Shown piece after piece: positions 1,126 through 54,811 of a stretch of 64,000 nt of DNA; position 1 is the stretch's first letter; each line of letters begins with the position of its first letter. The notes beneath the pieces are model-generated. The model saw only the letters and a program-made list of their open reading frames with translations, was not told where the DNA came from and did no database searches. Both the position numbers and the translations under genes were made by a program. The stretch comes from Pelagomonas calceolata. Taxonomy: Eukaryota; Sar; Pelagophyceae; Pelagomonadales; Pelagomonadaceae. The DNA is taken from contig CAKKNE010000003.1 in NCBI GenBank assembly GCA_918797485.1, positions 3,596,001-3,660,000 on the forward strand, given 5' to 3'.

Positions 1126-2292
1126 CTATCGCGGCGATGGCGTCATCGCGGCGAACGCCTCAGTGATGGAGCCCACGTCCGAGTCGCGAGCGCTCAGCGT
1201 AGCTCGCGACGCTCGCAGTTGGCGCTCAATCACTGTTGTGAGCGGGTGCGCGCCACCGAGCACGCGCCGCGCGGTCCGTGCCGTCTCTTCAAGCGTCGTC
1301 ACAGCTCCGCGGAGATCGTCGAGCGTGGAGCCGGTGTCAAAACAGATCGACGCCGCATAACCAAATCTCATCTTGAGCGTGATGTCATGATTATCTCCGA
1401 GAACGCGTCGCGCCACAGGAGTTATTCGGCGCAGCAACGTCTTGGCTTCTTCGAAGTGCTGTAGTTGGACAAGGGACGTCGCATAGTTGTTGGCCGCTAG
1501 GAGGGTTTGCAGATGCTCCTCGCCGTGTAACCTTAAACGCCCGGAGTATACGTCTCGCCGTATGCGCAGGCACTCTTCTACCCGTCCAACCGCTTCATAC
1601 GAGCTCGCAAGATTGCTCTGACCGGCGAGCATGTCATCTTCTGGTGAACCAATTCGCCGCAGCATAGACAATATGGCCTCTCTTACGGACAACGCCTCAT
1701 AATTTCCTGCTTCGTGTAAACCATTCCCAAGCTGGTCCATCGCGACTAACCGAACCTGGTCCGTCTCCGAAAGCCCCAAGTACGTCTTCCAGCACGCCCA
1801 CCCGAGCGCGCACGCCACGACGCCGTGGTACTCTTGCTCGCATAGACTACACGTGTTCCACCGCGCCCACCTCTCGTCCAATTTGTCGTCCAAATGGTTC
1901 TCCTCGGCCTCCGCGACCAAAATCTTCGCCTGCTCCGCCAGGCACGACACGTGCACGAAGCCCGCCGTCCCGCGACAGGAACAACCGCGCACGAGGCCCT
2001 CCTTCGTTTTCCAGTGCAAGGCTTGCGTGCAGATGTAGCACGTCTGCCCCTTCGTGTCCTCGGCGCACGCCTCCGCCGCGACCGCGACGGCCTTCGTATA
2101 CCGCTGGTCAGCGTTGTACTGCTCAGCGCCACCAGAGCGCTTTATTTTCTTGCAGAGCTGGTCGTGCCCGCCTTCTTTCCAGTGCTGCACCTGGCAGGCT
2201 GCCCCGCAGTAGCGCGTGCTGCAGCGGCCGCATTTCTTGCCCCTGGTTAAGCCAAGGTCGGTGGCGCAGACGGCGCAGTGCGTGAGGATCAT
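1126..2292 (-). CDS. MYND + RING-CH + TPR protein, array 1 copy A
   Basis: 388-residue member of the window's expanded family. Residues about 6-47 form a MYND-like zinc finger (CAVC, CGRC, C..C, H...C). Residues about 85-150 form a RING-CH (C4HC3) finger with CYIC, CSC, HVSC and CSLC ligands followed by a conserved ALGWACWKTYLG stretch. The rest (about 185-370) is kinesin-light-chain-like TPR repeats (VYSGRLRLHGEEH..TL.AANNYA). RING-CH fingers usually belong to E3 ubiquitin ligases and MYND fingers bind proline-rich peptides, so a substrate-recognition role for the TPRs is inference. The last codons (FAAMTPSPR) are written by the dispersed word at 1129-1143, which also occurs inside introns here. 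A CTAG motif lies at 2362-2384, about 70 bp upstream. Confidence 0.85.
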   Translation of the reverse strand: MILTHCAVCATDLGLTRGKKCGRCSTRYCGAACQVQHWKEGGHDQLCKKIKRSGGAEQYNADQRYTKAVAVAAEACAEDTKGQTCYICTQALHWKTKEGLVRGCSCRGTAGFVHVSCLAEQAKILVAEAEENHLDDKLDERWARWNTCSLCEQEYHGVVACALGWACWKTYLGLSETDQVRLVAMDQLGNGLHEAGNYEALSVREAILSMLRRIGSPEDDMLAGQSNLASSYEAVGRVEECLRIRRDVYSGRLRLHGEEHLQTLLAANNYATSLVQLQHFEEAKTLLRRITPVARRVLGDNHDITLKMRFGYAASICFDTGSTLDDLRGAVTTLEETARTARRVLGGAHPLTTVIERQLRASRATLSARDSDVGSITEAFAAMTPSPR

Positions 2293-2361
2293 CTCGTTAG
2301 ACGGTTGTGTCGCGGCGGCAGCGTGGGGCAGCCCTACAATGTCTAAAAGCCTCTCGCAAAG

Positions 2362-2384
2362 GCTAGTGCCTTACAGCCGCTAGC
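2362..2384 (-). promoter_or_regulatory. CTAG-flanked upstream motif of copy A
   Basis: On the minus strand reads GCTAGCGGCTGTAAGGCACT followed by AGC, 70-92 bp upstream of the copy A start codon. Nearly the same motif is found at similar places before many other genes in the window. A core-promoter or leader role is inferred from position and recurrence. Confidence 0.5.
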
Positions 2385-2395
2385 CGCCGCCAGTG

Positions 2396-2440
2396 GTCGT
2401 ACCGCTATAGGCTGCGTGTGGCGTAACTAGTGTCTCTTAA
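2396..2440 (+). repeat. Copied RPS16 3' end (diverged copy)
   Basis: Resembles RPS16 1084-1123 (last codons, stop and 3' flank including CGTAACTAGTGTCTCTTAA) with a few changes. It sits between copies A and B of the MYND array, directly at the 3' side of copy B, and marks a duplication junction. It has no coding role of its own. Confidence 0.85.
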
Positions 2441-2448
2441 CTTACCTG

Positions 2449-3621
2449 CTACGCGGCGCCCAGGGCCCCGAGCGCGTCCCCGAGGGCCTCGACGTCGCGG
2501 GCGGCGAGCGCGGCTCGCGCGTCTCGTAGGGATTCCTCATGTCCCGTTGTGGTCGGGTGCGAGGCGCCAAAAACGCGCCGCGCGGTCCGTTCCGTGTCCT
2601 CGAGCGTCGTCACGGCCTCGCGGACATCGTCGAGCGTGGCGGCGGTGTCCCGGCAGAGCGCCTCCGCGTATTTCCACCTCATCTTGAGCGTGATTTCGCT
2701 ACTCTCATCGAGAACGCGTCGCGCCACGGGAATCATTTTGTGCAGCAGCGACTTGGCTTCTGCGTAGCGCTTTAGATGGGTAAGGGAGATCGCATAGTTG
2801 TTGGCTGCCATAAGGGTGCCTCTATTTTCCTCGCCATTGAGCTTCAACTGTCCGGAGTATACGTCTCGCTGCATAGATGAGGCCTCTTCGAGCCGTCCGA
2901 GATTATGATACGAGACCGCAAGATTGGCCTGCACGTCGAGAATTCGTCCTGCTGATGCGCCAGCGCGCCGCCGCATAGCCAACTCGGCCTCTTGCACGGA
3001 CAACGCCTCCTCGAAGCGTCCCGCATCGCCTAAACCTATCCCAAGTAGCATCATCGCAGCACCCCGAGGCCAGTCCGTCTCCGGCCGACCAAGGTACGTC
3101 TTCCAGCACGCCCAACTGAGCGCGCAAAAAACGACGCCGTGATAGTCTTGCTCACACAAGCTACACGTGTGCCACCGGTCCCACCTCCCCTTGAGGGCCA
3201 AATTGTTCTCCTCGGCCTCGTCATTCAAAATCTTCGCCTGCTCCGCCAAGCACGAAACGTGCGCGATGCCCGTCCTGCCAGAAGCAACGCCATCACGATC
3301 TCCACACGCGCATCCGCGCACGAGGCCTTCTCCGGTGCGTGAGTGCACGGCCTCCATACAAATATAGCACGTCTGGCCCCTCGTGTCGTCGGCGCACGCC
3401 TCGACCGCGACCGCGACCGCCTCGTTACATTTTATGTCGGCGTGGTATTGCTCCGCGCCGCCGGCGCGCCTAATCCGTCGACAGAGCGCCTCGTGTCCGC
3501 CCCTCTCCCAGTGCTGCACCTGGCAGTCAGGCCCACAGTAGCGCGTGCTGCAGCGGCCGCATTTCTTCCCCAAGCTTAAGCCAAGGTCGGTGGCGCAGAC
3601 GGCGCACTGCGTGAGGATCAT
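2449..3621 (-). CDS. MYND + RING-CH + TPR protein, array 1 copy B
   Basis: 390-residue paralogue of copy A with the same order: MYND finger at about 6-47, RING-CH finger at about 85-155 and TPR repeats to about residue 360. Its RING-CH finger is unusual in carrying extra residues (ACGDRDGVASGRTGIAH) between the third and fourth ligand groups, which may loosen the fold. It also has CRRI rather than CKKI after the MYND finger and ends with an Ala/Gly/Leu-rich tail. Between its 3' end and copy A lies a diverged copy of the RPS16 tail. The upstream CTAG motif is at 3693-3715. Function beyond a probable ubiquitin-ligase scaffold is not shown by the sequence. Confidence 0.83.
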   Translation of the reverse strand: MILTQCAVCATDLGLSLGKKCGRCSTRYCGPDCQVQHWERGGHEALCRRIRRAGGAEQYHADIKCNEAVAVAVEACADDTRGQTCYICMEAVHSRTGEGLVRGCACGDRDGVASGRTGIAHVSCLAEQAKILNDEAEENNLALKGRWDRWHTCSLCEQDYHGVVFCALSWACWKTYLGRPETDWPRGAAMMLLGIGLGDAGRFEEALSVQEAELAMRRRAGASAGRILDVQANLAVSYHNLGRLEEASSMQRDVYSGQLKLNGEENRGTLMAANNYAISLTHLKRYAEAKSLLHKMIPVARRVLDESSEITLKMRWKYAEALCRDTAATLDDVREAVTTLEDTERTARRVFGASHPTTTGHEESLRDARAALAARDVEALGDALGALGAA

Positions 3622-3692
3622 CTTGTATGTGGTCTAACCGCTCGGGGGCAGCCCTGCGATGCAAAATGCCTTGCCAAGCTCGATGGCTAAAT

Positions 3693-3715
3693 GCTAGTGC
3701 CTTACAGCCGCTAGC
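3693..3715 (-). promoter_or_regulatory. CTAG-flanked upstream motif of copy B
   Basis: Same motif as at 2362-2384, 72-94 bp upstream of copy B and in the same orientation relative to the gene. Role inferred. Confidence 0.5.
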
Positions 3716-3738
3716 CGCCGCAGGGTGGGTTCAATAAG

Positions 3739-3760
3739 TGGCTCTCTCTCTCTCTCTCTC
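3739..3760. repeat. (TC)n microsatellite with acceptor-like end
   Basis: A CT/TC run followed by CCGCAG just before the third copy of the RPS16 tail. It resembles a polypyrimidine tract with a 3' splice site, but no functional exon follows. It is either a simple repeat or a fossil of an intron that once preceded the last RPS16 codons. Confidence 0.6.
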
Positions 3761-3770
3761 CGCAGGTTGT

Positions 3771-3813
3771 GAAGTCGTACCGCTAGGCTGTGGGCGTAAC
3801 TAGTGTCTCTTAA
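3771..3813 (+). repeat. Copied RPS16 3' end (43 nt, identical)
   Basis: These 43 nt are identical by eye to RPS16 positions 1081-1123: the codons for KSYR, the stop and the 3' flank. The identity ends abruptly on the upstream side. The piece lies just 3' of copy C and shows that tandem duplication of the MYND unit carried along the end of RPS16. Confidence 0.9.
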
Positions 3814-3831
3814 CCTCGCGGCGGCGGCGTG

Positions 3832-5001
3832 CTACGCGGTGCCCATCGCTCCAACCAGCTCCCGGAGGGCCTCGACGTCGCGGGCGCCGAGAGCCACTTC
3901 GAGCACCGCTCGTGATGCTCGCAATTCGCCCCCAATCCCTTCTGTGAGGGGGTGCGCGCCACCAAAAACGCGCCGCGCTGTCCGTTCTACTTCTTCGAGC
4001 GTCGTCACGGCCTCGCGGCGATTGTCGAGCGTGGCGGCGGGGTCCCGGCAGAGCGCTTGCGCGTACATCGACCGCATCTTGAGCGTGAGTTCATCGCTCT
4101 CTCTGAGAACGCGTCGCGCCACAGGAGTTATTCGGCGCAGCAACGTCTTGGCTTCTTCGAAGCGCTTTAGACCAACAAGGCGCGACGCGTAGTTGTTGGC
4201 TGCTATGAGGGTTTGCGGATGCTCCTCGCCGTGTAACCTTAAACGCCCGGAGTATACGTCTCGTTCCATGCTTAGAGCCTTTTCAAGATCTCTAACCGCT
4301 GCACACGCGATCGCAAGAGCGCTCTGTGCGGCGAGTATGTTTTCTTCTGATGCGCCATGGCGCCGCATCATAGCCAAGTCGGCCTCTCTCACGGACAACG
4401 CATCCGCCAAGTGTCCTACCTCGTGTAAACCGTTTCCAAGCAGGCTCATCGCACCACTCAGTACGGGTTCAGTCTCAGGTCGATCCAGGTACGTCTTCCA
4501 GCACGCCCACCCGAGCGCACATAACACGACGCCGTGGTACTTTTGCTCGCACAGGCCGCACGTGTCCCACCGCAGCCACCGTTCATTCGCCTTGTCGAGC
4601 AAATTATTCTCCTCGGCCTCCGCGATCAAAATCTTCGCCTGCTCCACCAGGCACGACACGTGCGCGAAGCCAGATGTGCCGCGACACGAACACCCACGCA
4701 CGAGGCCCTCCTTTGTTTTCCAGTGGAGGGCCTGCGTGCAGATGTAGCACGTCTGGCCCTTGGTGTCCTCGGCGCACGCCGTCGCCGCGACCGCGACGGC
4801 CTCCGAGTACTTGTTATTTGCGTGGTATTGCTCAGCGCCACCAGAGCGCTTTATTTTCTTACAGAGCTGGTCATGACCGCCCTCTTTCCAGTGCTGCACC
4901 TGGCATTCAGGCCCACAGTAGCGCGTGCTGCAGCGGCCGCATTTCTTGCCCAAGGATAAGCCAAGCTCGGTGGCGCAGACGGCGCACTGCGTGAGGATCA
5001 T
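3832..5001 (-). CDS. MYND + RING-CH + TPR protein, array 1 copy C
   Basis: 389-residue paralogue of copies A and B. The MYND finger (CAVC..CGRC..C..C..H..C, residues about 6-47) is followed by a RING-CH finger (CYIC, CSC, HVSC, CGLC) and the ALGWACWKTYLDRPE segment, then by TPR repeats with the family signature VYSGRLRLHGEEHPQTL. It is closer to copy A than to copy B in the finger region and keeps the compact RING-CH spacing. All three array members face the same way, each with its own CTAG motif upstream (here 5074-5096), so they are probably transcribed separately. A role as an E3-type adaptor is inference. Confidence 0.85.
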   Translation of the reverse strand: MILTQCAVCATELGLSLGKKCGRCSTRYCGPECQVQHWKEGGHDQLCKKIKRSGGAEQYHANNKYSEAVAVAATACAEDTKGQTCYICTQALHWKTKEGLVRGCSCRGTSGFAHVSCLVEQAKILIAEAEENNLLDKANERWLRWDTCGLCEQKYHGVVLCALGWACWKTYLDRPETEPVLSGAMSLLGNGLHEVGHLADALSVREADLAMMRRHGASEENILAAQSALAIACAAVRDLEKALSMERDVYSGRLRLHGEEHPQTLIAANNYASRLVGLKRFEEAKTLLRRITPVARRVLRESDELTLKMRSMYAQALCRDPAATLDNRREAVTTLEEVERTARRVFGGAHPLTEGIGGELRASRAVLEVALGARDVEALRELVGAMGTA

Positions 5002-6120: not shown

Positions 6121-8783
6121 CTAGAGCGCCCGCGCCTCGGCGTTCAGCTCGCGCAGTCTCTTCTCGATGGTCGCCTTCTCCGCGGCGATACGCGCCAGCT
6201 TCTTCCGAGCCGACGACTGCGACTTCGGTGGAGGCGCCTTGATCGGCGGCGTCCGCACCGGCGTCCCACCGCGCGGGAAGCAGTCGTCGACGAGGCGCTG
6301 GTAGGGCATCCTTTGCGACCCATCGACGCCGTACCAAATCAGCAGTTCGCGCATGCCGCCCTCGACGATCGTCGCTTTCAAGTCCCGGAAGGCCCGCAGC
6401 AAGTCCTTCTCGTCGAGCATCCCGCTTCCACTCTTATCCAGTCGCACGCAAGTACCCAGCAACAAGTCGCGAGGCCGCACTACTTTCTTCTTACCGACGG
6501 AAGCCCGCGGCAACGCCTTCAGAATCGAGTCCCGGATCTGGCCCACTAATTGTTTAACTCGTTTCGGCGTCTCAACGACAACGGGCTTCGAGGGATCCTG
6601 CGTCGAACGACCATGCACTCACGCGACGCGTCGACGCTCGGACGATCATGAAGACGCCATCTTCCCAAAGTTCAAGTTGAGAAATCGATTTACATTTGAC
6701 GCTGAGTCACGGACGTGGAATTCGTTGGCCTTCGCCGTCGCCATGAAGTGGAGGCACCTGCGGCGGTGTCGCGTGATCGTCTCCACGAGAGACGATGCAT
6801 GGTCGGGGACGCCGCGGGACGTGCGTCTTCCCGAGCTCCTCGACTAAATCCATGTAGTGGATCTCCCCATCCCCGAAGCGCCCCTGCTCGCCCTTGCGGT
6901 CGTAGTAATTGACCAGTTGATGCGCCGTATTATCGTCGATCTGCAAACCGCAGCGCCCGATCGCGCCCACGAATTCTTTGGTGTTGAGCTCGCCACTACT
7001 ATCCTGGTCCCAGGCCTGGAACGCCTCCCGTAAAATGGACGTGACCGTGCCGCCTGCGCGGAGCATCGCGGTCGCGTCGACGGCGTCCCGAGGACCACGT
7101 AGACTCTCGTGGGACCACGTTGTCTCGTGAAGACGCCATCTTCATGAAAGCGGTCCCTCTGATGACACACCGCGGTCCGAAACAGCTCAAATTCGAAAAC
7201 GAGACCACCCACGACCTGCTCTCCCGGAGACGACGCATGGTGTGAAGGCACCGACGTGGGACGCCGCGACCGCACCCTTCCGGACCATGATGGCAAAAAG
7301 AGCGGTCTTGAGTCGTACTTTGAACTCCTCGGCCAATTGGCAAGGGACCTTCTCCAGCGGGCGATTCGTGAACATGAACTGCATCATGCGCTCGTCGTCG
7401 TGGGCCTTGCCCCGCGTCGACGGCTCGGCCCGGTCCAGCTTCCGGAGCGTCTCCAACGTCGCGGCGTCATTATATTGCTTCGTGAAGTGCGGCACGCCCG
7501 CCGTTATGTCCTTCACGAGCTGGTCGTAGCGCATCTCGCCCTTGCCCGTCGAATCGTAGAGGTCCACAATTTGCACGGCCTCGTCCTCGGACATGGCCAG
7601 ATTCAGCTGCCACATGGCGTTGCCTGCGCCGCGGCGTCGTGACGCCATCTTCCCAAAGTTCAAGTTGACGCGGAGTCCGCACGGAACTCGTCGTAGTCCA
7701 ATTTTCCAGAGGCGTCCTTGTCCCAGTTGAGGAACGCGTTCCTTACCAAATACCTGCGTGCGGAAACGCGGTCTCGAGGGTGGTCTCGGGTCCGAATTCG
7801 AGCCGAGGCGGTCCGAATGGCCTCAAACTCGAAAAAGAAACGACCCACGCCCTCGTGAGACAGACACGAGTCCCAGCAACGAAGGGAAGCCACCCCAACA
7901 CGCCAAGACGCCGAGCTCCGCGCCGCTCGTTCTCGCCCTTGCCCGCGATGTGTCTGAACAATTTTTGCCTCACTTTTTTTATAAATCTTCTGAGCACCGG
8001 CGGGAAGGGCCCGTCCGGCCTTGCCGATTTAGGTATAGGTGGTTGGGGCTGTAAAAAATGCGTCGAGGCGTTGACCACGTCCTCAATGAGTAAGTCGTAG
8101 GTCATCTCATTTTTCTGTACTGATGTATATGCGGACTCGACGCCGCCGTAATACCCGACTAAATAAGACGCGTCGGCTTGGGAGATGTCCAAGCCTAAAC
8201 TTCTAATAGCTTTCCGGAATTCCGTGGAGTCGATCGTGCCGCTACAATCCGCGTCCCAGTTCAGGAAGCATTCTCTTAAATAGGTCCCTTCCGTGCCGCC
8301 GTGCTCCCTACTCTTCTTGTCGAGGACGCGTCTTATTCTTCTCACAAAATCAGTGACTTTTTTGTCGGGCCTCGCGTTCTTCGCCTGGAGGGCGGCCTGC
8401 TTCTGGGCGAATTTCACCTGTGTGTTGTCGAGCGTGAGTGGCGCGCTCGCGTCGACGGCGTGGAGCGTGACGGCCCTCGCGAGGCGCGTGGACTCTCGCG
8501 TGATCATGATCTCACGAAGACGCCATCGGCGCGGTCCGAAGCGGCTCAAATTTGGACCAGAGACCACCCACTTCCATCGTTCCTGGCGACGACGCGCGTC
8601 GATGGCGTAAGGCTCCATATTGACGCTGGGACGGACGGCCGCGAAGTCCTCGTGCTTGCGCTGCTCCGCGAAACAGGACCACTTGACGTCGGGGAGGTTT
8701 TGTTCTTCCCGGTAGGCGGCGCGCCGCGCCTCCATGACGGCCTTGGGGTCCGCCGGGGCGGCGTTGCTGGCGGCGCGGCCCAT
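6121..8783 (-). CDS. Multi-EF-hand calcium-binding protein, six exons
   Basis: Exons on the minus strand: 8783-8637, 8417-7924, 7753-7683, 7623-7276, 7053-6821, 6597-6121 (589 residues). Splice phases 0, 2, 1, 1, 0 all close. The protein has four repeats of a paired EF-hand unit; canonical loops are DADCSGTIDSTE, DKDASGKLDYDE, DQDSSGELNTKE and DKSGSGMLDEKD, each followed by a degenerate partner (for example DSTGKGEMRYDQL). It ends in a basic coiled coil (ARKKLARIAAEKATIEKRL). Such tandem EF-hand proteins in algae are often flagellar or cytoskeletal Ca2+ sensors, which is inference here. Intron density is far above the rest of the window, and the introns share sequence with introns of unrelated genes. 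The exon 2/3 donor is either GC (preferred, because repeat lengths then match) or a GT 24 nt further on. Confidence 0.8.
6598..6820 (-). mobile_element. Introner-like intron, EF-hand intron 5 (223 nt, composite)
   Basis: GT-AG, phase 0. Begins GTCCCGCGGCGTCCC like other introns here. Its second half (GACTCAGCGTCAA ... TTTCTCAACTTGAA ... GATGGCGTC) matches EF-hand intron 3 and the aminotransferase intron, so two introner types seem joined. Mobility is inferred from repetition. Confidence 0.65.
7054..7275 (-). mobile_element. Introner-like intron, EF-hand intron 4 (222 nt)
   Basis: GT-AG, phase 1, joining RKG to GTVTSILREAF. It carries the block GTGGGTGGTCTCGTTTTCGA..TTTGAGC..TTCGGACCGCG, the GCCTTCAC..CCATGCGTCGTCTCC block near its 5' end and the word TCGCGTCGACGGCGT (7072-7086, plus strand). 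The same blocks occur in introns of glycine decarboxylase, TTD14-like and oxygenase-like genes. Confidence 0.75.
7624..7682 (-). mobile_element. Short introner-like intron, EF-hand intron 3 (59 nt)
   Basis: GT-AG, phase 1, between DEF(R) and NAMWQLNLAMSEDE. Contains TCAACTTGAACTTTGGGAAG next to GATGGCGTC, also present in intron 5 of the same gene. It has the same length as helicase intron 1. Confidence 0.7.
7754..7923 (-). mobile_element. Introner-like intron, EF-hand intron 2 (170 nt, GC donor)
   Basis: Probable GC-AG intron, phase 2, joining GENER to YLVRNAF. Carries the CACGAGGGCGTGGGTCGTTTC..TTCGAGTTTGAGG..ATTCGGACCGC block. An in-phase GT donor 24 nt downstream is the alternative and would add eight residues. 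Confidence 0.65.
8418..8636 (-). mobile_element. Introner-like intron, EF-hand intron 1 (219 nt)
   Basis: GT-AG, phase 0, joining EDFAA to VKFAQKQ. The frame happens to stay open through it. Alignment of its blocks (GCGTCAATATGG, CCTTACGCCATCGACGCGCG, GTGGGTGGTCTCTGG..TTTGAGC..TTCGGACCGCG, CACGCCGTCGACGCGAG) with the other introns identifies it as intronic. Confidence 0.65.
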
Positions 8784-18415: not shown

Positions 18416-19235
18416 CGGGTTCTCGAGCATGTTCCTGAGAATCACATAAGGCGTATGGGTCTCATTATACCCTTGGCCGATGAGCGACTTCAGGACCTTG
18501 TTCTTGTCGGCCATGGATCTGAGGAGTGAAAGGGCTTCGGTCTCGGACATGGCGGCCGACGTGTGGGAGCCTGCGTGTGTCGCGGTGTCCGAATCGGCTC
18601 AAACTCAAAAAATAAACCACCCACGTCATCGTGAGATGGCCACGAGTCGTTCGAATGATGTGAAGGCGCCTCTACACTTGAAAACGCGGAGATACGGACC
18701 GAGCTCCATCGGTTCTTCAAGCCTGATATTAGCGGGCACGGTGCTCGTCACTAACTCGTCGAGACTTTCGAAGCCGATCGTCTTCAACATCTCGAGCTGG
18801 TCCTTCTCGGAGGGGCCCATGTGGCGGCGCTCGAAGGTGTCGAGCCTGCGTGCGTTTTGCGTGAGTTCGTCGCGCGGTCGGCGCGGTGTCGCTCGGGTGT
18901 GTTTTCTCGTTCTCTCGTCGTCGCGCGTCGCTGCGCAGCGGTGCGAGCTCTCCGCGTCGACGGCGAATCGGCGCGCAGCCGTTGGTCGACGTGACAGTTC
19001 AGCCGCGATTCGCGCGCGTGAGTCGGCGGCCTTCCTTTTTTCGTGGCGCCGCGTAGGAGCGCTGCAAATCAATGGACGCGGCCGCGCGCGGGTCCAGAGC
19101 CTTGACCGGCGTCTCGCTGTTCGGGTAGATGTGCGCGATCGGCTTGCCAGCGGCTGCGGCGGCCGTGGATTTGTTGCGCAGCAAAGCCCGGAGCAGGCGC
19201 ATCTTCGTCTCGCGTGTCTTCGGCGCGAGCATCAT
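15523..19235 (-). CDS. GLDC: Glycine decarboxylase P-protein, mitochondrial, five exons
   Basis: Exons: 19235-19078, 18845-18700, 18570-16889, 16709-16442, 16286-15523; phases 2, 1, 0, 1 all close, giving 1005 residues, the usual P-protein size. P-protein uses pyridoxal phosphate to decarboxylate glycine and passes the aminomethyl group to H-protein in the mitochondrial glycine cleavage system, a key photorespiratory step. Visible marks are [58 protein letters not shown] and the PLP-lysine segment [16 protein letters not shown], which intron 4 splits. [19 protein letters not shown] is a plausible mitochondrial presequence; an in-frame Met 33 nt further on (19202) is an alternative start. Intron 1 is the least certain boundary. 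Confidence 0.95.
16287..16441 (-). other. GLDC intron 4 (155 nt)
   Basis: GT-AG, phase 1, inserted within the Cys codon right after HKTF of the PLP-binding motif. It has no strong match to the main introner blocks apart from a TTCAAGTTG word. Confidence 0.85.
16710..16888 (-). mobile_element. GLDC intron 3 (179 nt) with inverted-repeat core
   Basis: GT-AG, phase 0, joining GLKCVI to [10 protein letters not shown]. Holds the dispersed word as an inverted pair, ACGCCATCGATGCGA (16788-16802) and TCGCGTCGATGGCGT (16810-16824), able to form a hairpin. Confidence 0.7.
18571..18699 (-). mobile_element. Introner-like intron, GLDC intron 2 (129 nt)
   Basis: GT-AG, phase 1. Shares GGCGCCTTCACATCATT, CATCTCACGATGACGTGGGT, TTTGAGC..ATTCGGAC blocks with EF-hand introns 2 and 4 and the TTD14-like intron. 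Confidence 0.75.
18846..19077 (-). other. GLDC intron 1 (232 nt)
   Basis: GT-AG, phase 2, joining ALDPRAA(A) to [11 protein letters not shown]. Chosen because it restores the P-protein N-terminal reading with matching phase. No clear introner blocks were seen. Confidence 0.6.
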
Positions 19236-21739: not shown

Positions 21740-23174
21740 TTACCACGCCCCCCGCCGCGGGTCCGCGTTCGCGTCGCCATCATAGGGATCGTTCGACACC
21801 TCGCCCGCGAGCATCATGGTCCGCGCATAGCTATCGTGCGCCGACGACGAGAACCAGTGCTTCGTGGTCACATCCACTTTCGCTTCCAAGAACGGAGGAA
21901 AGGAGAACTCGCCCTTGGGCGCCTCGACGAAGAGCGTGGTCGTGCCGGACGCGGATTCGGGCGAGTGGAACGTGTCGAGCATGTAGTACTCGTCGCGCCA
22001 CAAAAACGCGCGCCGCGTCTTCTTGATCTTCAGGCGGCCCGGGTCCCGCGTTTTGAGCAATGCTTTATATTCTCTGAGAGATAGGGTCCTTTCGGACGTC
22101 GAGTGCTCGTCGCCGACCATTTTACCCCGCACGCGATGGTGGTACGTCGCGGGACCGCCCCCGACGCTCGACTTCTTCGTGACACGCGACTCGCTTCCAT
22201 CGGAGGTCCTCAAAAAAACGTGCTCCAGCTTCCACTCCGCCGGCTCCAATTGCGCTAAAGCCTGTTCGTCGACGTTGCGCACGATCCACCAGCGCGGCTG
22301 CGATCTGGGTCCAGGGACACCGAGACTTCGACACACAACATCAACCGTTTTTCGTATTTTTTCTTCGAAGCTCCCCGTGCCGTTCTCCACCACGTGCAGC
22401 GCGTTGTGGCCGACCCAGGCCCTGGCTAGCCTTCCGTCCAGCGCGATGGCCTCCGGACGACTTTCCATCCGAGCCTTGTTGTTCTCCAACGTGTAGAAGC
22501 GCTCGGCGCCGATCGCCGCGGTCACTAAATGCACTACGGCTTCATATCTCTGGTCGCGTAGTTGCGGTATCGTCCAATTGAACTCCTCGAGGACCTGCGC
22601 GTGATGAAATGCGCTCAAACTCGAAAATGAGACCACCCCCGGCATCGTGAGATGGAGGCGAGTACGATCTCCGAAGAAAGGCCTCGGGACGCCGCAGTCA
22701 TGCGTCATCAAATTGATCTTTGCCCACGTACGCCAAGACGTCCATCGTACCTCGATCCATCAAGAGCACGGCGTGCCTCCCTTCTGAGAGGGAGCACTTC
22801 TCGGCGATGTCGCGGAAATTGTCCTCGAGGGCCATCTGTATTTTCAGCACAGAAACCTCCCAGTCGCGGTGTTGCCGTTGCGTGTAGTTCCCGGGCTTCG
22901 CGCCTCCGGTAATAGTTAGCGTGGCGACCTCCGGAACGACAAACACGTCGAACCCCATGTTTTGTAACCGTAAAGATAATTTGGCCATCGCCGTGGTTTT
23001 TCCGGCACACGGGCCGCCGGTGATGACGATGCGGTGGACGCGCGGCGGTCCGAGCTTGTCGGACGACGCCTTCCAGGTCGTGCGTTTTTGGAGGGTGTCC
23101 TCGTCGCATCTCGTGAGTGCGGCGAGCGTGGCGCAGGGCGCGGCGTGCCGTAAGCGGAGCGCGGCGCGCCACAT
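21740..23174 (-). CDS. TTD14-like P-loop NTPase / CYTH-domain protein, two exons
   Basis: Exons 23174-22704 and 22594-21740, phase 0, 441 residues. The N-terminal half is an AAA_28 type P-loop NTPase: Walker A GGPCAGKTTAM, then VPEVATLTITGG and LLMDRGTMDVLAYVGKDQFDD. The C-terminal half (from about residue 215) looks like a CYTH/triphosphate-tunnel fold: YEAVVHLVTAA upstream, RRWW-type RWWIVRNVDE, KKSSVGGG and YYMLDTF. This order matches animal TTD14 (TRPL translocation defect 14), which binds GTP and phosphatidic acid in vesicle traffic, and its protist relatives. MWRAALRLRHAAPCATLAAL may be a targeting leader. The intron appears to use a GC donor; a GT donor 18 nt upstream would delete conserved residues. 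Confidence 0.75.
22595..22703 (-). mobile_element. Introner-like intron in TTD14-like gene (109 nt, GC donor)
   Basis: Starts GCATGACTGCGGCGTCCCGA and ends CACGCGCAG; phase 0. Contains CATCTCACGATGCCGGGGGT and TCATTTTCGAGTTTGAGC, shared with GLDC intron 2 and EF-hand introns. Confidence 0.7.
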
Positions 23175-23646: not shown

Positions 23647-25320
23647 ATGACGCCGTCGCTGCGCCGCCTCGTCACCCTCGCCTGCTGCGCCGCCGCCGCC
23701 AAGAAGCCGCCCCCGAAACGCGTCGCGTTAGTCTCGTTTGCCGCCCCGTGGGACTACGGCCCCTACGCGCACCAGCTGCGAGAGCTCGCCGAGCACTGGC
23801 TGTCGACGCACCACGTCGTCTGGATCGGGTTGTCGGGCACCGTCGACCGCATCCAGTATGGAGCGCCGAAGATCTCGCCGCTGGTCGGCTACCGGGGCGC
23901 AGGGATGAGCAAAGATCCCGTAAAAAAAGTTTCGAAACTCAACCGCATCTTCGAGAAGGAAAAAATTGATTTTGCCATTACTTTATGTGACCTGAACAAC
24001 GTGGGCGGGGACGAGGCCTTCGTCATACCGACGATCGCATGGTTTCCGTCGCACACCGGGGAATTGGATCTGGCTTCTGCCCATGCTTTAAGGGCTTATG
24101 ACGCCGTCGCGGCTCTGTCGCCGTCGGATGCTCGTTCCATCGGGAGGGAACTACCGTCGAAGCGAGTCGCTCGCATCCCGCACGTCGTGGATGGCCGCAA
24201 ACATGTGTCTACCGATGATAGAGCACTACTGAGAAAGAAATGGAACGTACCTACAGATGCCTTCGTGCCGGTCATGTCCTTCGGGAACTATGCAAGTGAC
24301 GATAGGAAGGGTGTGGACGTCGCTGCTCTAGCTTACTCCGATTTCTGTCGGAGCTACCAGCAGCCTTCTTACCTATATATCAGAGCGGTCACGATCAACG
24401 CGTCGATAGGCCATCGCATGGCCGCCTCCCTCCCAGTAGAAAGCATGTTTAGAGCTGCCGGCGTGCCTTCGGGACGGTACGTCGTCGACACCGTCGAACG
24501 CGACTATGCGGAAAGTCTCGAAGTTGTGGCATTGGCGGACGTGTTACTGCACCCGTCCCGGTCCGAGGGCTTCGGCATGCTCGTGCTCGAGGCGCAGCAC
24601 ATCGGCGTGCCCGTGATCACGACGAGAAGAGGTGCCATGAAGGACTACACGATGCACGGAGTTTCTGTAAAACCCGTGCAGCGCGAGTGGCTCAACATCG
24701 GCTACGTCGCGACGCCCGACGTCCACGGCGTCGCCGAGGCGCTGCGAGGCGTCGCGAACGGCACGTGCTGCGACGCGAACGGCGAAAAACAGCGAGCTAT
24801 AGATGTGGTCACGAACTCGATGTCCCGGACGTCCGTCGGCTGGGCCTTCGACGACCTCGTCGATACCATATCGAGAAGACCATTACTTCCCAGTGTCTTG
24901 AGGTACGGGTCGACGTCGTGCAGCGTCATACAAGAACAGGACCACGAATGGGTCGTTATTGCCGACCGGCAGCACGTCCTTGACGCGCATGCGTTATCAA
25001 CAGCTATCGAGGACCTCAATAGTAGGGACGCGCCGCCTTTGGTCGTCGTCAAAACCTTAGAATTGTTCGACAAAGTGGCCTCGCCCTTCGACGCCGATTC
25101 ACTGTTGAACGTAAGGCCGGTCGCACTTGCAAGGGCAGGCGAGCTCAAACGAGCCATGGAGCAGGCGGCGTCGTTCATGGACCGGGCCGTCGACGAGGCC
25201 GTGCGCGGTTTGATCAAGCGGGCGTCGGCCCAAGACATTCTGTTGGACGTCGTCGCCGCGCGGCGGTGGGTCGACCCGATCAATAATCCCAACTGGAACG
25301 CGCGGCCGGCGGGGCTCTAA
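23647..25320 (+). CDS. GT4-type glycosyltransferase
   Basis: 557 residues from the preferred ATG at 23647, which opens a short hydrophobic leader (MTPSLRRLVTLACCAAAA), so secretory targeting is likely. The frame is open upstream, but without domain content. The core follows the retaining GT-B fold: N-terminal VALVSFAAPWDYGPYAHQLRELA, then FVPVMSFGNYASDDRKGVDV and the GT4 donor-site signature RSEGFGMLVLEAQHIGVPVITT with its E-x7-E pair. It presumably transfers a sugar from a nucleotide donor to a glycan or glycoprotein; the donor is unknown. Its stop overlaps the stop of the convergent RING-CH/TPR gene. About 70 nt of its 3' end recur at 26570-26635 and a scrap at 27861-27875. Confidence 0.85.
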   Translation: MTPSLRRLVTLACCAAAAKKPPPKRVALVSFAAPWDYGPYAHQLRELAEHWLSTHHVVWIGLSGTVDRIQYGAPKISPLVGYRGAGMSKDPVKKVSKLNRIFEKEKIDFAITLCDLNNVGGDEAFVIPTIAWFPSHTGELDLASAHALRAYDAVAALSPSDARSIGRELPSKRVARIPHVVDGRKHVSTDDRALLRKKWNVPTDAFVPVMSFGNYASDDRKGVDVAALAYSDFCRSYQQPSYLYIRAVTINASIGHRMAASLPVESMFRAAGVPSGRYVVDTVERDYAESLEVVALADVLLHPSRSEGFGMLVLEAQHIGVPVITTRRGAMKDYTMHGVSVKPVQREWLNIGYVATPDVHGVAEALRGVANGTCCDANGEKQRAIDVVTNSMSRTSVGWAFDDLVDTISRRPLLPSVLRYGSTSCSVIQEQDHEWVVIADRQHVLDAHALSTAIEDLNSRDAPPLVVVKTLELFDKVASPFDADSLLNVRPVALARAGELKRAMEQAASFMDRAVDEAVRGLIKRASAQDILLDVVAARRWVDPINNPNWNARPAGL

Positions 25321-26369
25321 GTTAGTTTTTTACGTGCCAGGTAGGCCGCGGCGAGGGCGAGCGCGGCGGCGGCAAAGATGGCGACGCACGTTGGCGCGTG
25401 TTCGTGGATGCTGAGCATTGCTCGCGCGTTTCGCAGATGGCGCTCAATCCCCGCTGTGGTCGGGTGCGCACCGCCGAACACGCGCCGCGCGATCCGGTCC
25501 GTGTCCTCGAGCAACGCCACGGCCTCGCGGAGATCGTCGAGCGTGGCGGCGGGGTCGTCGTAGAGCGTCCGCGCGTAAATCGACCTCATCCTGAGCGTGA
25601 ATTCATGATTCTCGCCGATAACGCGTCGCGCCACGGGCATCATTTTGCGCATGAAAGAATTGGCTTCTTCGAAGCGCTCTTGCTGATTAAGGGACGCCGC
25701 GCAGTTGAGGGCCGCTCGGAGGGTCCCTTGATGTTCCTCGCCATAGAGCTTCAAACGTCCTGAGTACACGTCGTGAAACATGTTTGAGGCCTCTCCAAGG
25801 CGTCCAAGTTCTCCATACGTGCACGCAAGATTGGTCTGCAAGCCGAGAATGTTGGCTTCTGATGCGCCAAGTCGCCGCAGCGTAGCCAACTCAGCCTCCA
25901 TCACGGACAACGCATCCTCGTAGTGCTCTGCCCTGGATAAACCGTTTCCGAGCTGCTCCATCCCCATGCGCCGAAGCTCGTCCACCTCCGGCCGACCCAA
26001 GTACGTCTTCCAGCACGCCCATCCGAGCGCGCACGCCACGTCGCCGTGGTACTTTTGCTCGCACAGGCTGCACGTGTGCCACCGATGCCACTGCGACACT
26101 TTATTATTCTCCTCGGCCTCGGCACACAAAATCTTCGCCTGCTCCGCGAGGCACGACACGTGCGCAAAGCCAGACGTTCCGCGGCACGCGCACATGCGCA
26201 CGAGGCCCTCCTTCGTTTTCCAGTGGAGGGCCTCCGTGCAAATGTAGCACGTCTGACCCTTGGTGTCGCCGGCGCATTTCTCGACGGCCTCCGCGACGGC
26301 CTCCGTGTATTTTGGGGCAGCCATGTCGGCGTCGAGCAGCGAGGGCGGGGCAGCCGCGGACGCAGCCAT
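25317..26369 (-). CDS. RING-CH + TPR protein with C-terminal tail anchor, array 2 copy D
   Basis: 350 residues from the ATG at 26369. It lacks the MYND finger of array 1 but keeps the RING-CH finger (CYIC, CACRG, HVSC, CSLC), the ALGWACWKTYLG segment and kinesin-light-chain-type TPRs. The C-terminus is a hydrophobic helix with a basic end (VAIFAAAALALAAAYLARKKLT), typical of a tail anchor, so it may act as a membrane-bound, MARCH-like ubiquitin ligase; that is inference. Its stop codon overlaps that of the GT4 gene by three bases. The CTAG motif is at 26464-26486. The frame is open further upstream, but the added residues look like leader. Confidence 0.83.
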   Translation of the reverse strand: MAASAAAPPSLLDADMAAPKYTEAVAEAVEKCAGDTKGQTCYICTEALHWKTKEGLVRMCACRGTSGFAHVSCLAEQAKILCAEAEENNKVSQWHRWHTCSLCEQKYHGDVACALGWACWKTYLGRPEVDELRRMGMEQLGNGLSRAEHYEDALSVMEAELATLRRLGASEANILGLQTNLACTYGELGRLGEASNMFHDVYSGRLKLYGEEHQGTLRAALNCAASLNQQERFEEANSFMRKMMPVARRVIGENHEFTLRMRSIYARTLYDDPAATLDDLREAVALLEDTDRIARRVFGGAHPTTAGIERHLRNARAMLSIHEHAPTCVAIFAAAALALAAAYLARKKLT

Positions 26370-26463
26370 GACTTTGCACTGCCTCGCGCGAGTCGGCAGA
26401 ATTTGGGGGGGAAGGCACTGAACCAGCCCTCCCTCCGCGGATCTGCTTCGGTGCTTGTGAATT

Positions 26464-26486
26464 GCTAGTGCCTTACAGCCGCTAGC
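26464..26486 (-). promoter_or_regulatory. CTAG-flanked upstream motif of copy D
   Basis: Same motif as for copies A-C, 95-117 bp upstream of copy D in the same relative orientation. Role inferred. Confidence 0.5.
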
Positions 26487-26569
26487 TGCTCTCGTCTCCC
26501 CGCCCTGTGCACCGTAACAATTAGCCGTTTTACTTGCTCGTGTTAACCATCTCTCACGCATTTGGTTAT

Positions 26570-26635
26570 CGCGGCGAGGCGGTGGGTGGACCCCATCAAT
26601 AACCCGAACTGGAACGCGCGGCCGGCGGGGCTCTA
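26570..26635 (+). pseudogene. Copied 3' end of the GT4 gene
   Basis: Encodes a near-copy of the last GT4 residues (RRWVDPINNPNWNARPAGL and stop) placed at the 3' side of copy E exactly as the true gene end sits beside copy D. It is a fragment without promoter or upstream exon and marks a tandem-duplication junction. Confidence 0.9.
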
Positions 26636-27712
26636 AGTGAGTTTTTTACGTAACACTAGCACGGCCGCGACGGCGAGCGCGGCGGCGGCGTAGATGATGG
26701 CGGCGCCGCGCGTTCGCGCTTCTTCGCGGACTTCTTCGCGGAGCGCGGCTCGCGCTTGTCGCAGGTTATCCTCCATCGCCGTTGTGAGCGGATGCGCGCC
26801 GCCGAGCACGCGTCGCGCGGTCCGTTCCAACTCCTCGAGCGTATTCACTGACTCGATGGTATCGTCGAGCGTGGCGCCTTCGTCTAGGTAGAGCGCCATC
26901 GCGTACATCCACCCCAGCGAGAGTGTAAGACGATGATCATCTCCGAAGACGCGCCGCGCCACGGGCACCGTTCTGCGCAGCAGCAACTTGGCTTCTTCGA
27001 AGCTCTGTAGATTATAAAGGGACGCCGCGTAGTTGTTGGCCGTTCGGACGGTATCTTCATGTTCTTCGCCGTAGAACTTCAAATGTCCGGAGTATGCATC
27101 CTGTCGCATCTGCAAGGCCTGTTCTAACCGTCCGAGCTTATCATACAAGTTCCCAAGATTGCCCTGCACAACGAGAATGCTTGCTTCTGACGCGCCAAGG
27201 CGCCGCTTCATAGCCAACTCGGCCTCTCGCACAGTCAACGCGTCCTCGTGGTGTTCTGCGGCGGACAAACCGTTCCCTAGCGACGTCATCGCCAAGCTCC
27301 GAGCCACGTTCCCCTCCGGCCGCCCCACGTACGTCTTCCAGCACGCCCAGCCGAGCGCGCACTGGACGACGCCTTGGTACCGTTGCTCGCACAGGCTGCA
27401 CGAGTACCACCGCTTCCACCTCGCATCCCTCACCTTCCAGTCCAAATTGTTCTCCTCGGCCTCCGCGACCAAAATCTTCGCCTGCTCCGCCAGACACGAC
27501 ACGTGCACGAAACCCGCCGTCCCGCGGCACGAGCACATACGCACGAGGCCTTCCTTCGTTTTCCAGTGGAGGGCCTCCGTGCAGATGTAGCACGTCTGGC
27601 CCTTGGTGTCGTCGGCGCATTTCTCGGCCGCGACCGCGACGGCCTCATTGGATTTTTGGGCAGCCAGGTCGGCGTCATGCAGCCAGCCCCTGTCAGCCGC
27701 GGGTGCGGCCAT
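26633..27712 (-). CDS. RING-CH + TPR protein with C-terminal tail anchor, array 2 copy E
   Basis: 359-residue close paralogue of copy D, with the same lack of MYND, RING-CH finger (CYIC, CSCRG, HVSC, CSLC), TPR core (GNGLSAAEHHEDALTVREAELAMKRRLGASEASIL) and tail anchor (AAIIYAAAALAVAAVLVLRKKLT). It starts MAAPAADRGWLHDADLAAQKS, closely like copy D's MAASAAAPPSLLDADMAAPKY. Shared flanks, including the copied GT4 tail, show it arose from copy D (or the reverse) by tandem duplication. Unlike its neighbours it has no clear full CTAG motif upstream, only degenerate CTAG words, so its expression may differ. Confidence 0.83.
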   Translation of the reverse strand: MAAPAADRGWLHDADLAAQKSNEAVAVAAEKCADDTKGQTCYICTEALHWKTKEGLVRMCSCRGTAGFVHVSCLAEQAKILVAEAEENNLDWKVRDARWKRWYSCSLCEQRYQGVVQCALGWACWKTYVGRPEGNVARSLAMTSLGNGLSAAEHHEDALTVREAELAMKRRLGASEASILVVQGNLGNLYDKLGRLEQALQMRQDAYSGHLKFYGEEHEDTVRTANNYAASLYNLQSFEEAKLLLRRTVPVARRVFGDDHRLTLSLGWMYAMALYLDEGATLDDTIESVNTLEELERTARRVLGGAHPLTTAMEDNLRQARAALREEVREEARTRGAAIIYAAAALAVAAVLVLRKKLT

Positions 27713-30565: not shown

Positions 30566-31529
30566 TCATGACGGAGCCAGTTCATAGAAGTGCGGCGTCT
30601 GGCTTTCCATCACTTGAATCTGGGCCGGCCGCGCCGACGGTTGAGTAGAAGCGAAGTTGAGGCAGACCAGCACTCTTTCACCGTTCACTTTTGCCAAGTC
30701 ACCGGCAGAAAACGGCGCGGTTCTATGAGGCGCCCTCCCATCCACAACTATAGCGTCGCCCAGCTCATAGTCGTAGACCTTCACCTCGTCGATACAATCC
30801 CAGGTCCGATATTCTAACCGATACGCGTCCGGCGCCGGCCGAGTGTCTCTGAGAGGTAAGAGTACAGAAAAGGCCTCGTGGTCCTGGCACGGGCCCCAGT
30901 CCTCGTGCCACCGCGCGATGTCGTCGGTGATGCCCGCTTTCGCACCGACGATGGAGATGAAGCTCGCCGCCGAGAGTTGTACACTATTTTCCGCTTCCCA
31001 TCCGCCGCTGTAGACGGACGCCTCCATGGCCGGCAGAAAATGTTGTGCGAGGGGCCGGAAGAGGTCCAACGTCTCGCTATCAGCAGCATAGAGCCAGCGC
31101 ATGGCCCTGGTCGTGCCTGCGCGAATCGCGGTCCCGACGCGGTCCACGACCTCCTCTCCTGGAGACGACGCGCGTCGATGGCGTGAAGGCGCCGCAGCAC
31201 CGCGGGACGCCGAGATACTGACCAGCAGCGTAGCAGTGAAACCCGCCATCACTCACGCGGAGCTCCGTGCTGGCTGCAGGTGGTGCCAATTCCGGAACTA
31301 AAGCGTCGCGGTAGTTGCTTTTGAGGTCGTCGAAGGCCCGGGCGATCGGCGCCAGCGTCGCATGCGCGTCATTTGTACTGTGCGCCCACCTATGGGCGCA
31401 GACGCCCTTGACGGCCAGCGAGCTCAGGCCGCGCATGTCGTCGTTTGTTCGAGGTTTGGCGCCGAAGAGGGCGCCGAGCTTGAGGCCGGCGGCGAGGCGG
31501 AGCAGCAGCAGCGTGCAGGCGGCCCGCAT
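30566..31529 (-). CDS. Secreted or organellar 2OG-Fe(II)-oxygenase-like protein, two exons
   Basis: Exons 31529-31223 and 31116-30566, phase 1, 285 residues. The N-terminus (MRAACTLLLLRLAAGLKLGALF) is a signal-peptide-like leader. The C-terminal half has a cupin-like pattern: IARWHEDWGPCQDHEAFSVLLPL, a long strand stretch with YELGDAIVVDGRAPHRTAPFSAGD and RVLVCLNF. HEDW and APHRT could supply the His-x-Asp/Glu...His metal triad of phytanoyl- or prolyl-hydroxylase-like enzymes. The exact subfamily is not recognised and enzymatic activity is inference. It is convergent with the SET gene with a 24-bp gap. Confidence 0.55.
31117..31222 (-). mobile_element. Introner-like intron in oxygenase-like gene (106 nt)
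   Basis: Starts GTCAGTATCTCGGCGTCCCG and ends TTCGCGCAG; phase 1. Contains GCCTTCACGCCATCGACGCG and CGTCGTCTCCAGGAGAGGAG, matching EF-hand introns 1 and 4. A more canonical GTGAGT donor upstream fails the phase test. Confidence 0.7.
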
Positions 31530-49165: not shown

Positions 49166-49561
49166 CCTAGGCGGCCCGCTAGCGATACCGCGTCGCTGCG
49201 CTTGTTGTTGTAGCCGCTCGCAGGGATGAAAAGGTTACGTTAGCGGCGATGCAAGCCCGGTAAAGGCAGCAGCGCGCTCTGAACTGCAATGGGCCCCTGG
49301 GGGCTGATTCTAGTGTCTTACGCCCCGCTAGTGTGCTAGCGACGGGTACGAGCGACGGTTCGACTCAAGGCTCCCGCCCGGATCCGTCGCGTTGTCGTTT
49401 TGTCCCGTTTGTGCGGGCGCCGACCCCAAGAGGTACTAGGCTTTTGCCCGGAGAGCAAGTGGAGCAAGTGCCATTTCAAGCACGTACTAAGCCGTCGTAC
49501 AGCTGCCCATTTATTGCCACTGTCAGCCTTCGTAGGCAGCCCATCTATTGCAGCAGTGGTC
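49166..49561. promoter_or_regulatory. Divergent region RsfS / RING-CH copy G
   Basis: 396 bp between head-to-head starts with one CTAG motif. The copy G frame extends upstream to 49400, but without family similarity. Confidence 0.45.
49310..49332 (-). promoter_or_regulatory. CTAG-flanked motif upstream of RsfS
   Basis: Minus strand reads ACTAGCGGGGCGTAAGACAC then TAG, about 145-167 bp upstream of the RsfS ATG. Confidence 0.45.
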
Positions 49562-54736: not shown

Positions 54737-54811
54737 CTTAGCCCGAGGCTTAACTTGAGCAGGCATTTTGCATCCGTAGGGCTGCCCCCGAGCGATCTGA
54801 CCACATGCAAG

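What the first reader, a model, noticed from the sequence alone, without database searches (positions are those of the whole stretch)
6598..8636. Five introner-like introns in one EF-hand gene
Introns 1, 2, 4 share blocks (GTGGGTGGTCTC..TTTGAGC..TTCGGACCGCG) with introns in GLDC, TTD14-like and oxygenase-like genes, while most genes in the window have none. Sequence-related introns in unrelated genes are the hallmark of introners, known from Aureococcus and Micromonas as non-autonomous DNA transposons.
Basis: partly seen in the sequence, partly recalled or inferred. Interest (0 to 1): 0.75.

Follow-up and report, generated by a model that had tools for sequence, protein, structure and literature searches.

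The report
Intron-making mobile element in algal genes
A calcium-binding-protein gene of a marine alga is cut by six introns, at least three of which belong to one repeated family that has inserted into many unrelated genes and is spliced back out: a clear case of a known but still poorly understood way of making new introns.

Summary
The window lies in a 32.4-Mb, 8-contig genome that fits Pelagomonas calceolata RCC100. The EF-hand gene (minus strand, 8783-6121) needs six introns, not five; removing them gives one open 602-aa frame. A profile from 32 copies elsewhere, chosen only by a right-end motif that was then trimmed off, finds introns 1, 2 and 4 plus one intron each in a GLDC gene, a TTD14-like gene and a third gene (E 4.7e-25 to 4e-12; none in the reversed window). 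Genome-wide the core motif occurs 375 times against 44 in the control. Borders are exact: 35 of 36 frame-testable copies join in frame, and PRP8 with nine introns removed aligns without a gap to known PRP8. Downstream exons begin GT or GC in 108 of 121, and 26 of 121 donors are GC, which fits a donor taken from a short duplicated target. No clear terminal inverted repeats, no 8-bp duplication and no autonomous partner were found, so DNA transposition is likely but unproven. Introners were already suggested for this species in print: a new member of a known kind.

The parts
6121..8783 (-). EF-hand protein gene, 7 exons, 602 aa after removal of six introns
   Evidence: open frame through all junctions; Pfam EF-hand_6 8.6e-22, EF-hand_1 5.8e-20, EF-hand_7 1.8e-17; best PDB matches by sequence CFAP115 3.3e-12 and EFCAB6 1.1e-8, each a sum of weak repeats, followed by calmodulins and FAP252
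8418..8636 (-). intron 1, 219 nt, GT-AG, introner
   Evidence: profile hits 8e-14 and 2e-16; 43 genome matches, itself included
7754..7923 (-). intron 2, 170 nt, GC-AG, introner with a weak inverted partial second copy
   Evidence: profile hits 3.7e-24 and 1.4e-21; inverted hit 7772-7824, E 0.0046; 40 scored genome matches, itself included
7624..7682 (-). intron 3, 59 nt, GT-AG; family-like left end by eye and the short motif shared with intron 6
   Evidence: frame; motif in 35 genome places, control 0
7054..7275 (-). intron 4, 222 nt, GT-AG, introner with the right end GATGCTCCGCGCAG
   Evidence: profile hits 2e-16 and 9e-18; 40 scored genome matches, itself included
6758..6824 (-). intron 5, 67 nt, GC-AG, family-like left end by eye only
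   Evidence: frame continuity (a GT donor broke the frame); no profile hit
6598..6714 (-). intron 6, 117 nt, GT-AG, motif shared with intron 3
   Evidence: frame; motif count
18571..18699 (-). introner in a GLDC (glycine cleavage P-protein) gene, 129 nt
   Evidence: profile hits 7.9e-25 and 4.7e-25; GDC-P 1.3e-150 in the downstream exon; frames join, phase 1
22595..22703 (-). introner in a TTD14-like gene, 109 nt, GC-AG
   Evidence: profile hits 9.8e-13 and 4e-12; AAA_28 1.8e-12 in the upstream exon; frames join, phase 0
31117..31222 (-). introner in a third gene of unknown product, 106 nt
   Evidence: profile hits 1e-15 and 3.4e-17; frames join, phase 1

Best explanation
The introns are copies of an introner: a short (about 70-290 nt) non-coding element that inserted into exons and is removed by the spliceosome as an intron. 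Shown: hundreds of related copies, in unrelated genes where hosts were examined, with exact family-specific borders that restore the frame. Inferred from the borders: each copy brings its own 3' splice site (right end GATGCTCCGCGCAG), while the donor dinucleotide is the left copy of a short duplicated target beginning G-pyrimidine, whose right copy starts the next exon. Insertion at GT then gives a GT-AG intron and insertion at GC a GC-AG intron, some of which later mutate to GT. Inferred without direct proof: spread was by DNA transposition driven by an enzyme encoded elsewhere, and the shorter copies are internal-deletion derivatives.
For: Copies: introns 4, 2 and 1 as queries gave 40, 40 and 43 matches, themselves included, on C1-C6; only the best 40 candidates were scored. 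Core GGGTGGTYTCTTTTTCGA at up to 3 mismatches 375 against 44 control; right end at up to 1 mismatch 233 against 68. Profile from 32 copies not chosen by likeness to the window: six window introns, none in the reversed window. Hosts: 39 exons gave 38 Pfam families, 25 of them shown, all but one of these in a single member. Splicing: 36 copies with unambiguous flanking frames, 35 joined in frame, 32 unreadable if unspliced; 9 of 10 GC-donor copies in frame. PRP8: 549 aa after removal of nine introns aligns ungapped over residues 3-549 to PRP8 chain 9r8v_A; the chain labelled hPrp8 (3jcr_A) covers the same 547 residues with 547. Target signature: exon +1 is G in 119 of 121 (background 0.319, p 3e-56); +2 is T or C in 108 of those 119 (background 0.457, p 4e-25); donor T/C goes with exon +2 T/C (56, 27, 10, 15; p 0.013); donor +3 A goes with exon +3 A (9 of 14 against 21 of 107; p 0.001, a test prompted). 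The matching run at the border is 1.94 against 1.65 permuted, 0 of 1000 permutations as high. In the window, 8 of 9 downstream exons start GY and 3 of 9 donors are GC. 88 of 90 distinct exact right ends have another family block within 310 nt upstream, against 4.9% of random window pieces.
Against: No clear terminal inverted repeats: end-to-end score 10.11 against 9.81 (sd 0.11) with a shuffled right end, a small excess with only TGCG shared at the tips of the consensus ends. Donor-exon agreement is significant at positions 2 and 3 only (p 0.005, 0.0025), borderline at 4 (0.06), absent at 5-8; long matches (6 or more of the first 8) are 6 of 122 against 3.3 permuted, reached by 95 of 1000 permutations. 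The most similar pair (96.5%, L025/L074) shares only the G with its exon. In the unrestricted scan an exon-exon diagonal scored higher (z 4.92) than the junction offset (z 4.2), probably codon periodicity. No autonomous partner: DDE_Tnp_4 none, hAT dimer domain one match at 1.9e-4. Exon starts of ordinary introns of this genome were not available for comparison, so a general GY preference is not excluded. No RNA reads, no related genome, no empty site. The sample was collected by similarity to these introns and to the right-end motif, so right-end conservation is partly by construction.
Confidence: 0.8

Rival explanations
1. The introns spread through RNA: excised introns reverse-spliced into other transcripts, which were copied back into DNA. 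Both splice sites come with the element and there is no duplicated target.
For: Copies are bounded at the splice sites; no clear terminal inverted repeats; 88 of 90 exact right ends belong to intron-like family copies; phases are mixed (14, 11, 10 for phases 1, 2, 0); no donor-exon agreement beyond position 4.
Against: It does not predict that the exon after the intron starts G-pyrimidine in 108 of 121, nor that donor positions 2 and 3 follow that exon. GC donors in 26 of 121 are odd for an element that carries its own donor. Upstream exons show only a weak AG preference (-1 G 63 of 121, -2 A 46 of 121).
Confidence: 0.14
2. Older introns were secondarily invaded by a transposable element, so that similarity lies inside introns that already existed.
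For: Some copies hold an inverted second copy (7 of 122 introns), so rearrangement inside introns does occur.
Against: Family sequence begins at the donor and ends at the acceptor; the shortest copies, about 70 nt, consist of the two ends almost joined (printed).
Confidence: 0.05
3. Compositional artefact: GC-rich sequence and weak motifs read as introns.
For: The shortest block alone is not enriched in the window.
Against: Reversed-window controls empty; genome controls 44 and 68 against 375 and 233; ungapped PRP8 alignment.
Confidence: 0.01

Closest known systems
Introners of Symbiodinium microadriaticum (Fig. 2B legend of PMC9860276; abstract, passages and part 1 of 2 of its results seen)
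   Same: Carry the 3' splice site and take the 5' splice site from the duplicated target.
   Different: There 4-bp target duplications and terminal inverted repeats are reported as clear; here agreement is significant only at positions 2-3 and no clear inverted repeats were found. No sequence comparison was possible.
Introners of Aureococcus (passages and part 1 of the results of PMC9860276; Huff 2016 not held, known only through citations)
   Same: From a pelagophyte relative (relationship from PMC9481584); the P. calceolata genome paper links its 210-nt intron length peak to them.
   Different: The published Aureococcus sp. family 4 carries both splice sites and adds 12 nt to the transcript (4 from the element, 8 from the duplication); here nothing is added in PRP8 and no 8-bp duplication is seen.
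Introner elements suggested in Pelagomonas calceolata RCC100 (passages of PMC9481584)
   Same: Very probably the same genome: 32.4 Mb, 6 nuclear + 2 organelle contigs, 63% GC; same phenomenon.
   Different: The passages seen give only the length peak; Supplementary Note 3 could not be read here, so borders, donors and hosts may already be described there.
Amoebophrya introner elements (passages of PMC7789003)
   Same: Repeated introns in many genes, with short direct repeats (3-5 nt) at exon-intron borders and unusual splice sites.
   Different: There inverted repeats of 8-20 nt and widely varied splice sites; here the borders that I collected are GT-AG or GC-AG (the collecting pattern allowed only these) and no clear end-to-end inverted repeat.

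Membership tests
Introner (criteria of PMC9860276) | groups of similar introns in unrelated genes | tested here: met
[quoted passage not shown]
   border tables; the 30 most similar pairs listed have different exon flanks
Introner (criteria of PMC9860276) | copies are spliced out, leaving a working frame | tested here: met
   35 of 36 in frame; ungapped PRP8; by frame only, RNA reads not available
DNA-transposon-type introner | target site duplication | tested here: inconclusive
   GY in 108 of 121 downstream exons, donor-exon correlation at positions 2-3; no longer duplication, and little in the most similar pair
DNA-transposon-type introner | terminal inverted repeats | tested here: not met
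   10.11 against 9.81 (sd 0.11) shuffled; consensus ends share only TGCG at the tips
DNA-transposon-type introner | autonomous element with the same ends | tested here: inconclusive
   88 of 90 exact right ends have a family block within 310 nt; DDE_Tnp_4 none, hAT one match; other transposase families not searched
Aureococcus introners | 8-bp duplication | tested here: not met
   positions 5-8 show no donor-exon agreement; long matches not above permutation
Aureococcus introners | sequence relationship to Aureococcus copies | not testable with these tools
   no other pelagophyte genome was available to me

The most novel reading that the evidence does not exclude
An introner family without clear inverted repeats that makes GC-AG introns wholesale: because the donor is simply the left copy of a G-pyrimidine target, insertion at GC sites yields working GC-AG introns that are then slowly improved to GT-AG. 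The family has piled up in some dynein and perhaps other flagellar genes and in the gene of the spliceosome's own core protein PRP8, while sister dynein genes kept very long uninterrupted frames.
Probability: 0.35. Interest if true: 0.6.

Novelty: new member of a known kind. Interest (0 to 1): 0.45.

Why it matters
How genomes gain introns is a long-standing question, and introners are a major known source (PMC9860276). This family gives base-exact borders in very conserved genes such as PRP8, a simple testable rule for where the donor comes from, a natural series of GC donors at different stages of change to GT, and a striking split between introner-filled and uninterrupted genes of one protein family in one genome.

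Tried and rejected
Read alone, the block TTCGGACCGCG is not enriched in the window, so the claim was rebuilt on profiles with a reversed control. An 8-bp duplication was sought at many offsets and by long matches and not found. Terminal inverted repeats were sought and not clearly found. RNA hairpins in introns 4 and 1 are not clearly stronger than shuffles (z -1.21 and -0.61). Empty sites in paralogues were sought among the fetched loci; hits spanning a junction were alignments to the same locus or to other loci that I could not read as clean empty sites. A viral link: no match of the EF-hand intron region in phage records; viral contigs gave 0 matches for the core and the right end and 1 for the left end, which I take as chance because the profile finds nothing in that stretch. 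A first left-end pattern was too loose (it matched 94% of random pieces) and was replaced. The copy estimate of about 465 (331 excess core matches divided by 64 of 90) is rough. Only two transposase families were searched.

Rows dropped before counts: of 128 donor-acceptor pairs 127 had enough flank; duplicates by downstream exon were removed, leaving 122 or, without the window, 121; the in-frame test used the 36 with unambiguous frames on both sides (a looser cut gave 41 of 42). The second profile used 32 copies of at most 160 nt. In the cluster and dynein tests I used only the exact-match lists (94 and 59 places), left out the C5 copies of the duplicated C1/C5 end (90 and 54 left) and typed the positions by hand; the 19 dynein loci are my grouping of the 34 matches. 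For the host tally 39 of 56 listed loci were used; 9 had no intron row, the rest lay within 6 kb of one already taken or had short exons. How many of the 39 had no Pfam hit is not shown.

Full report
What the window is. The window is C3:3596001-3660000 of a genome of 32,445,274 bases in 8 contigs. Size, contig number and GC fit the published P. calceolata RCC100 assembly (32.4 Mb, six nuclear contigs, a plastid and a mitochondrial contig, 63% GC; passages of PMC9481584); the identification rests on this fit, not on a name given by a tool. That paper reports 0.45 introns per gene and an intron length peak near 210 nt that it links to the introner elements of Aureococcus, so introners in this species were already suggested. 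A library search for 'introner' with 'Pelagomonas' returned only that paper. Its Supplementary Note 3 could not be read.

The gene. On the minus strand from 8783 to 6121 a chain of seven exons gives one open frame of 602 aa when six introns are removed. A first attempt with a GT donor for intron 5 broke the frame; the GC donor at 6824 restores it. Introns 2 and 5 are therefore GC-AG. The protein has EF-hand domains. Its best PDB matches by sequence are axonemal proteins (axonemal role recalled): CFAP115 (3.3e-12) and EFCAB6 (1.1e-8), each a sum of weak repeats, then calmodulins and FAP252 (1.6e-7). A flagellar role is plausible but not shown.

The family. Introns 4, 2 and 1 as queries gave 40, 40 and 43 matches (themselves included) on C1-C6, with 83, 107 and 70 first-look candidates of which 40 were scored each time. 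A profile from 94 copies outside the window finds introns 1, 2 and 4 and one intron each in three other genes; since many of those copies had been fetched with these introns as queries, the cleaner test is, with 32 copies fetched only through the exact right-end motif and that motif trimmed off. It finds the same six introns at E 4.7e-25 to 4e-12, a weak inverted piece in intron 2 (0.0065), and nothing in the reversed window. Pfam finds GDC-P and AAA_28 in two of the other hosts. Genome counts: core 375 against 44, right end 233 against 68. Among 90 distinct exact right ends 64 carry the core, which gives a rough total near 465 copies. Lengths run from about 70 nt (a copy printed) to 299 nt at most, with most collected copies at 110-149 nt (78 of 127; a biased sample, since this class was searched for). 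The 39 host exons gave 38 Pfam families, among them dynein domains, a kinase, NMD3, a histone deacetylase, a phosphate transporter, squalene/phytoene synthase, condensin, an ABC transporter and a homeobox domain.

Splicing. Among 36 copies whose flanking frames are unambiguous on both sides, 35 are joined in frame by the family borders (a third expected by chance), and 32 of 36 could not be read through unspliced; in the one exception my pattern may have misplaced the donor. The clearest case is a PRP8 gene (L005). Removing nine introns gives 549 residues that align over residues 3-549 without a gap to PRP8 chain 9r8v_A; the chain labelled hPrp8 covers the same 547 residues with 547. By eye eight of the nine look like family members and the ninth is a 44-nt intron of another kind; three use GC donors. 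No residue is added or lost.

Where the donor comes from. In 121 distinct copies outside the window, the exon after the intron begins with G in 119 and with GT or GC in 108 (about 15% expected from nearby coding sequence). In PRP8 these first bases belong to codons of aligned residues, so they were probably there before the insertion. Donor position 2 (T or C) follows exon position 2 (p 0.013), donor position 3 A follows exon position 3 A (p 0.001; prompted), and the asymmetry (27 GT donors with a GC exon, 10 GC donors with a GT exon) is what a slow change of GC donors to GT would give. The best of 165 intron-to-exon offsets is exactly the junction, family-wise p 0.0115. I read this as a short target duplication beginning GY, whose left copy became the donor. 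GC donors at 26 of 121 (3 of 9 in the window) follow without further assumption. High GC donor shares are known for introner families in general (0 to 50% in PMC9860276). The missing control is the exon start of ordinary introns of this genome.

What speaks against a plain DNA transposon. Terminal inverted repeats are not clear. Agreement is significant at positions 2 and 3 only and gone by position 5; long matches are not above permutation. The most similar pair of copies (96.5% over 142 nt, different exon flanks) shares only the G with its exons. Of 90 exact right ends read, 88 have another family block within 310 nt, so those do not mark a longer relative, and two searched transposase families are absent or nearly so. 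The DNA route is my preferred reading; RNA-mediated insertion remains a live rival, and I have raised its odds slightly after the long-match test.

Distribution. Copies cluster: 23 of 54 exact cores and 42 of 90 exact right ends have another listed copy 0.4-15 kb away, against 2.5 and 6.8 at random. Dynein heavy-chain genes hold a large share: 25 of 129 exact-match sites lie within 9 kb of one of 19 dynein AAA_6 loci (1.4 expected, p 4e-24), and all 25 lie at 7 of the 19. Those 7 sit in open pieces of 153-570 aa. Of the other 12, ten sit in open frames of 1795-5136 aa (two of these ten are weak AAA_6 matches), while one (C4:1588 kb, up to 678 aa) and one (C6:1754 kb, up to 176 aa) are also broken up but have no listed copy. 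Why some dyneins are full of introners and others uninterrupted is unexplained.

Verdict. The finding is real and mostly correctly read. It is a well-bounded family within a known kind, in a species where introners had already been suggested.

Noticed in passing
G000 C1, C3, C4, C5 (dynein loci): Dynein heavy-chain genes split: 7 of 19 AAA_6 loci have exact-match introner sites within 9 kb and open pieces of 153-570 aa; of the other 12, ten lie in open frames of 1795-5136 aa and two are broken up without a listed copy.
   Followed up: partly
L005 1-3089 (C3:4278885-4281973): The gene of the spliceosome core protein PRP8 itself carries introner-like introns, eight of the nine removed by my reading; three of the nine have GC donors.
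   Followed up: yes
window 7624-7682 and 6598-6714: Introns 3 and 6 share TTGAACTTTGGGAAGATGGCGTC, a second motif with 35 genome places and none in the control, several of them in the same gene clusters as the main family.
   Followed up: partly
window 1126-5001, 25317-27712, 49400-50620, 54755-55984, 57763-58929: Related open frames of about 1.1-1.2 kb, repeated on both strands of the window (pairs of repeats at roughly 70-90% identity).
   Followed up: no
L033, L047, L050, L053, L108, L124, L125: Seven of 122 collected introns hold an inverted second copy of part of the element, as intron 2 of the EF-hand gene does weakly.
   Followed up: partly
G000 C1:248-371 kb and C5:248-371 kb: Copies appear at nearly the same positions on C1 and C5, which fits the duplicated chromosome ends reported in PMC9481584.
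   Followed up: no
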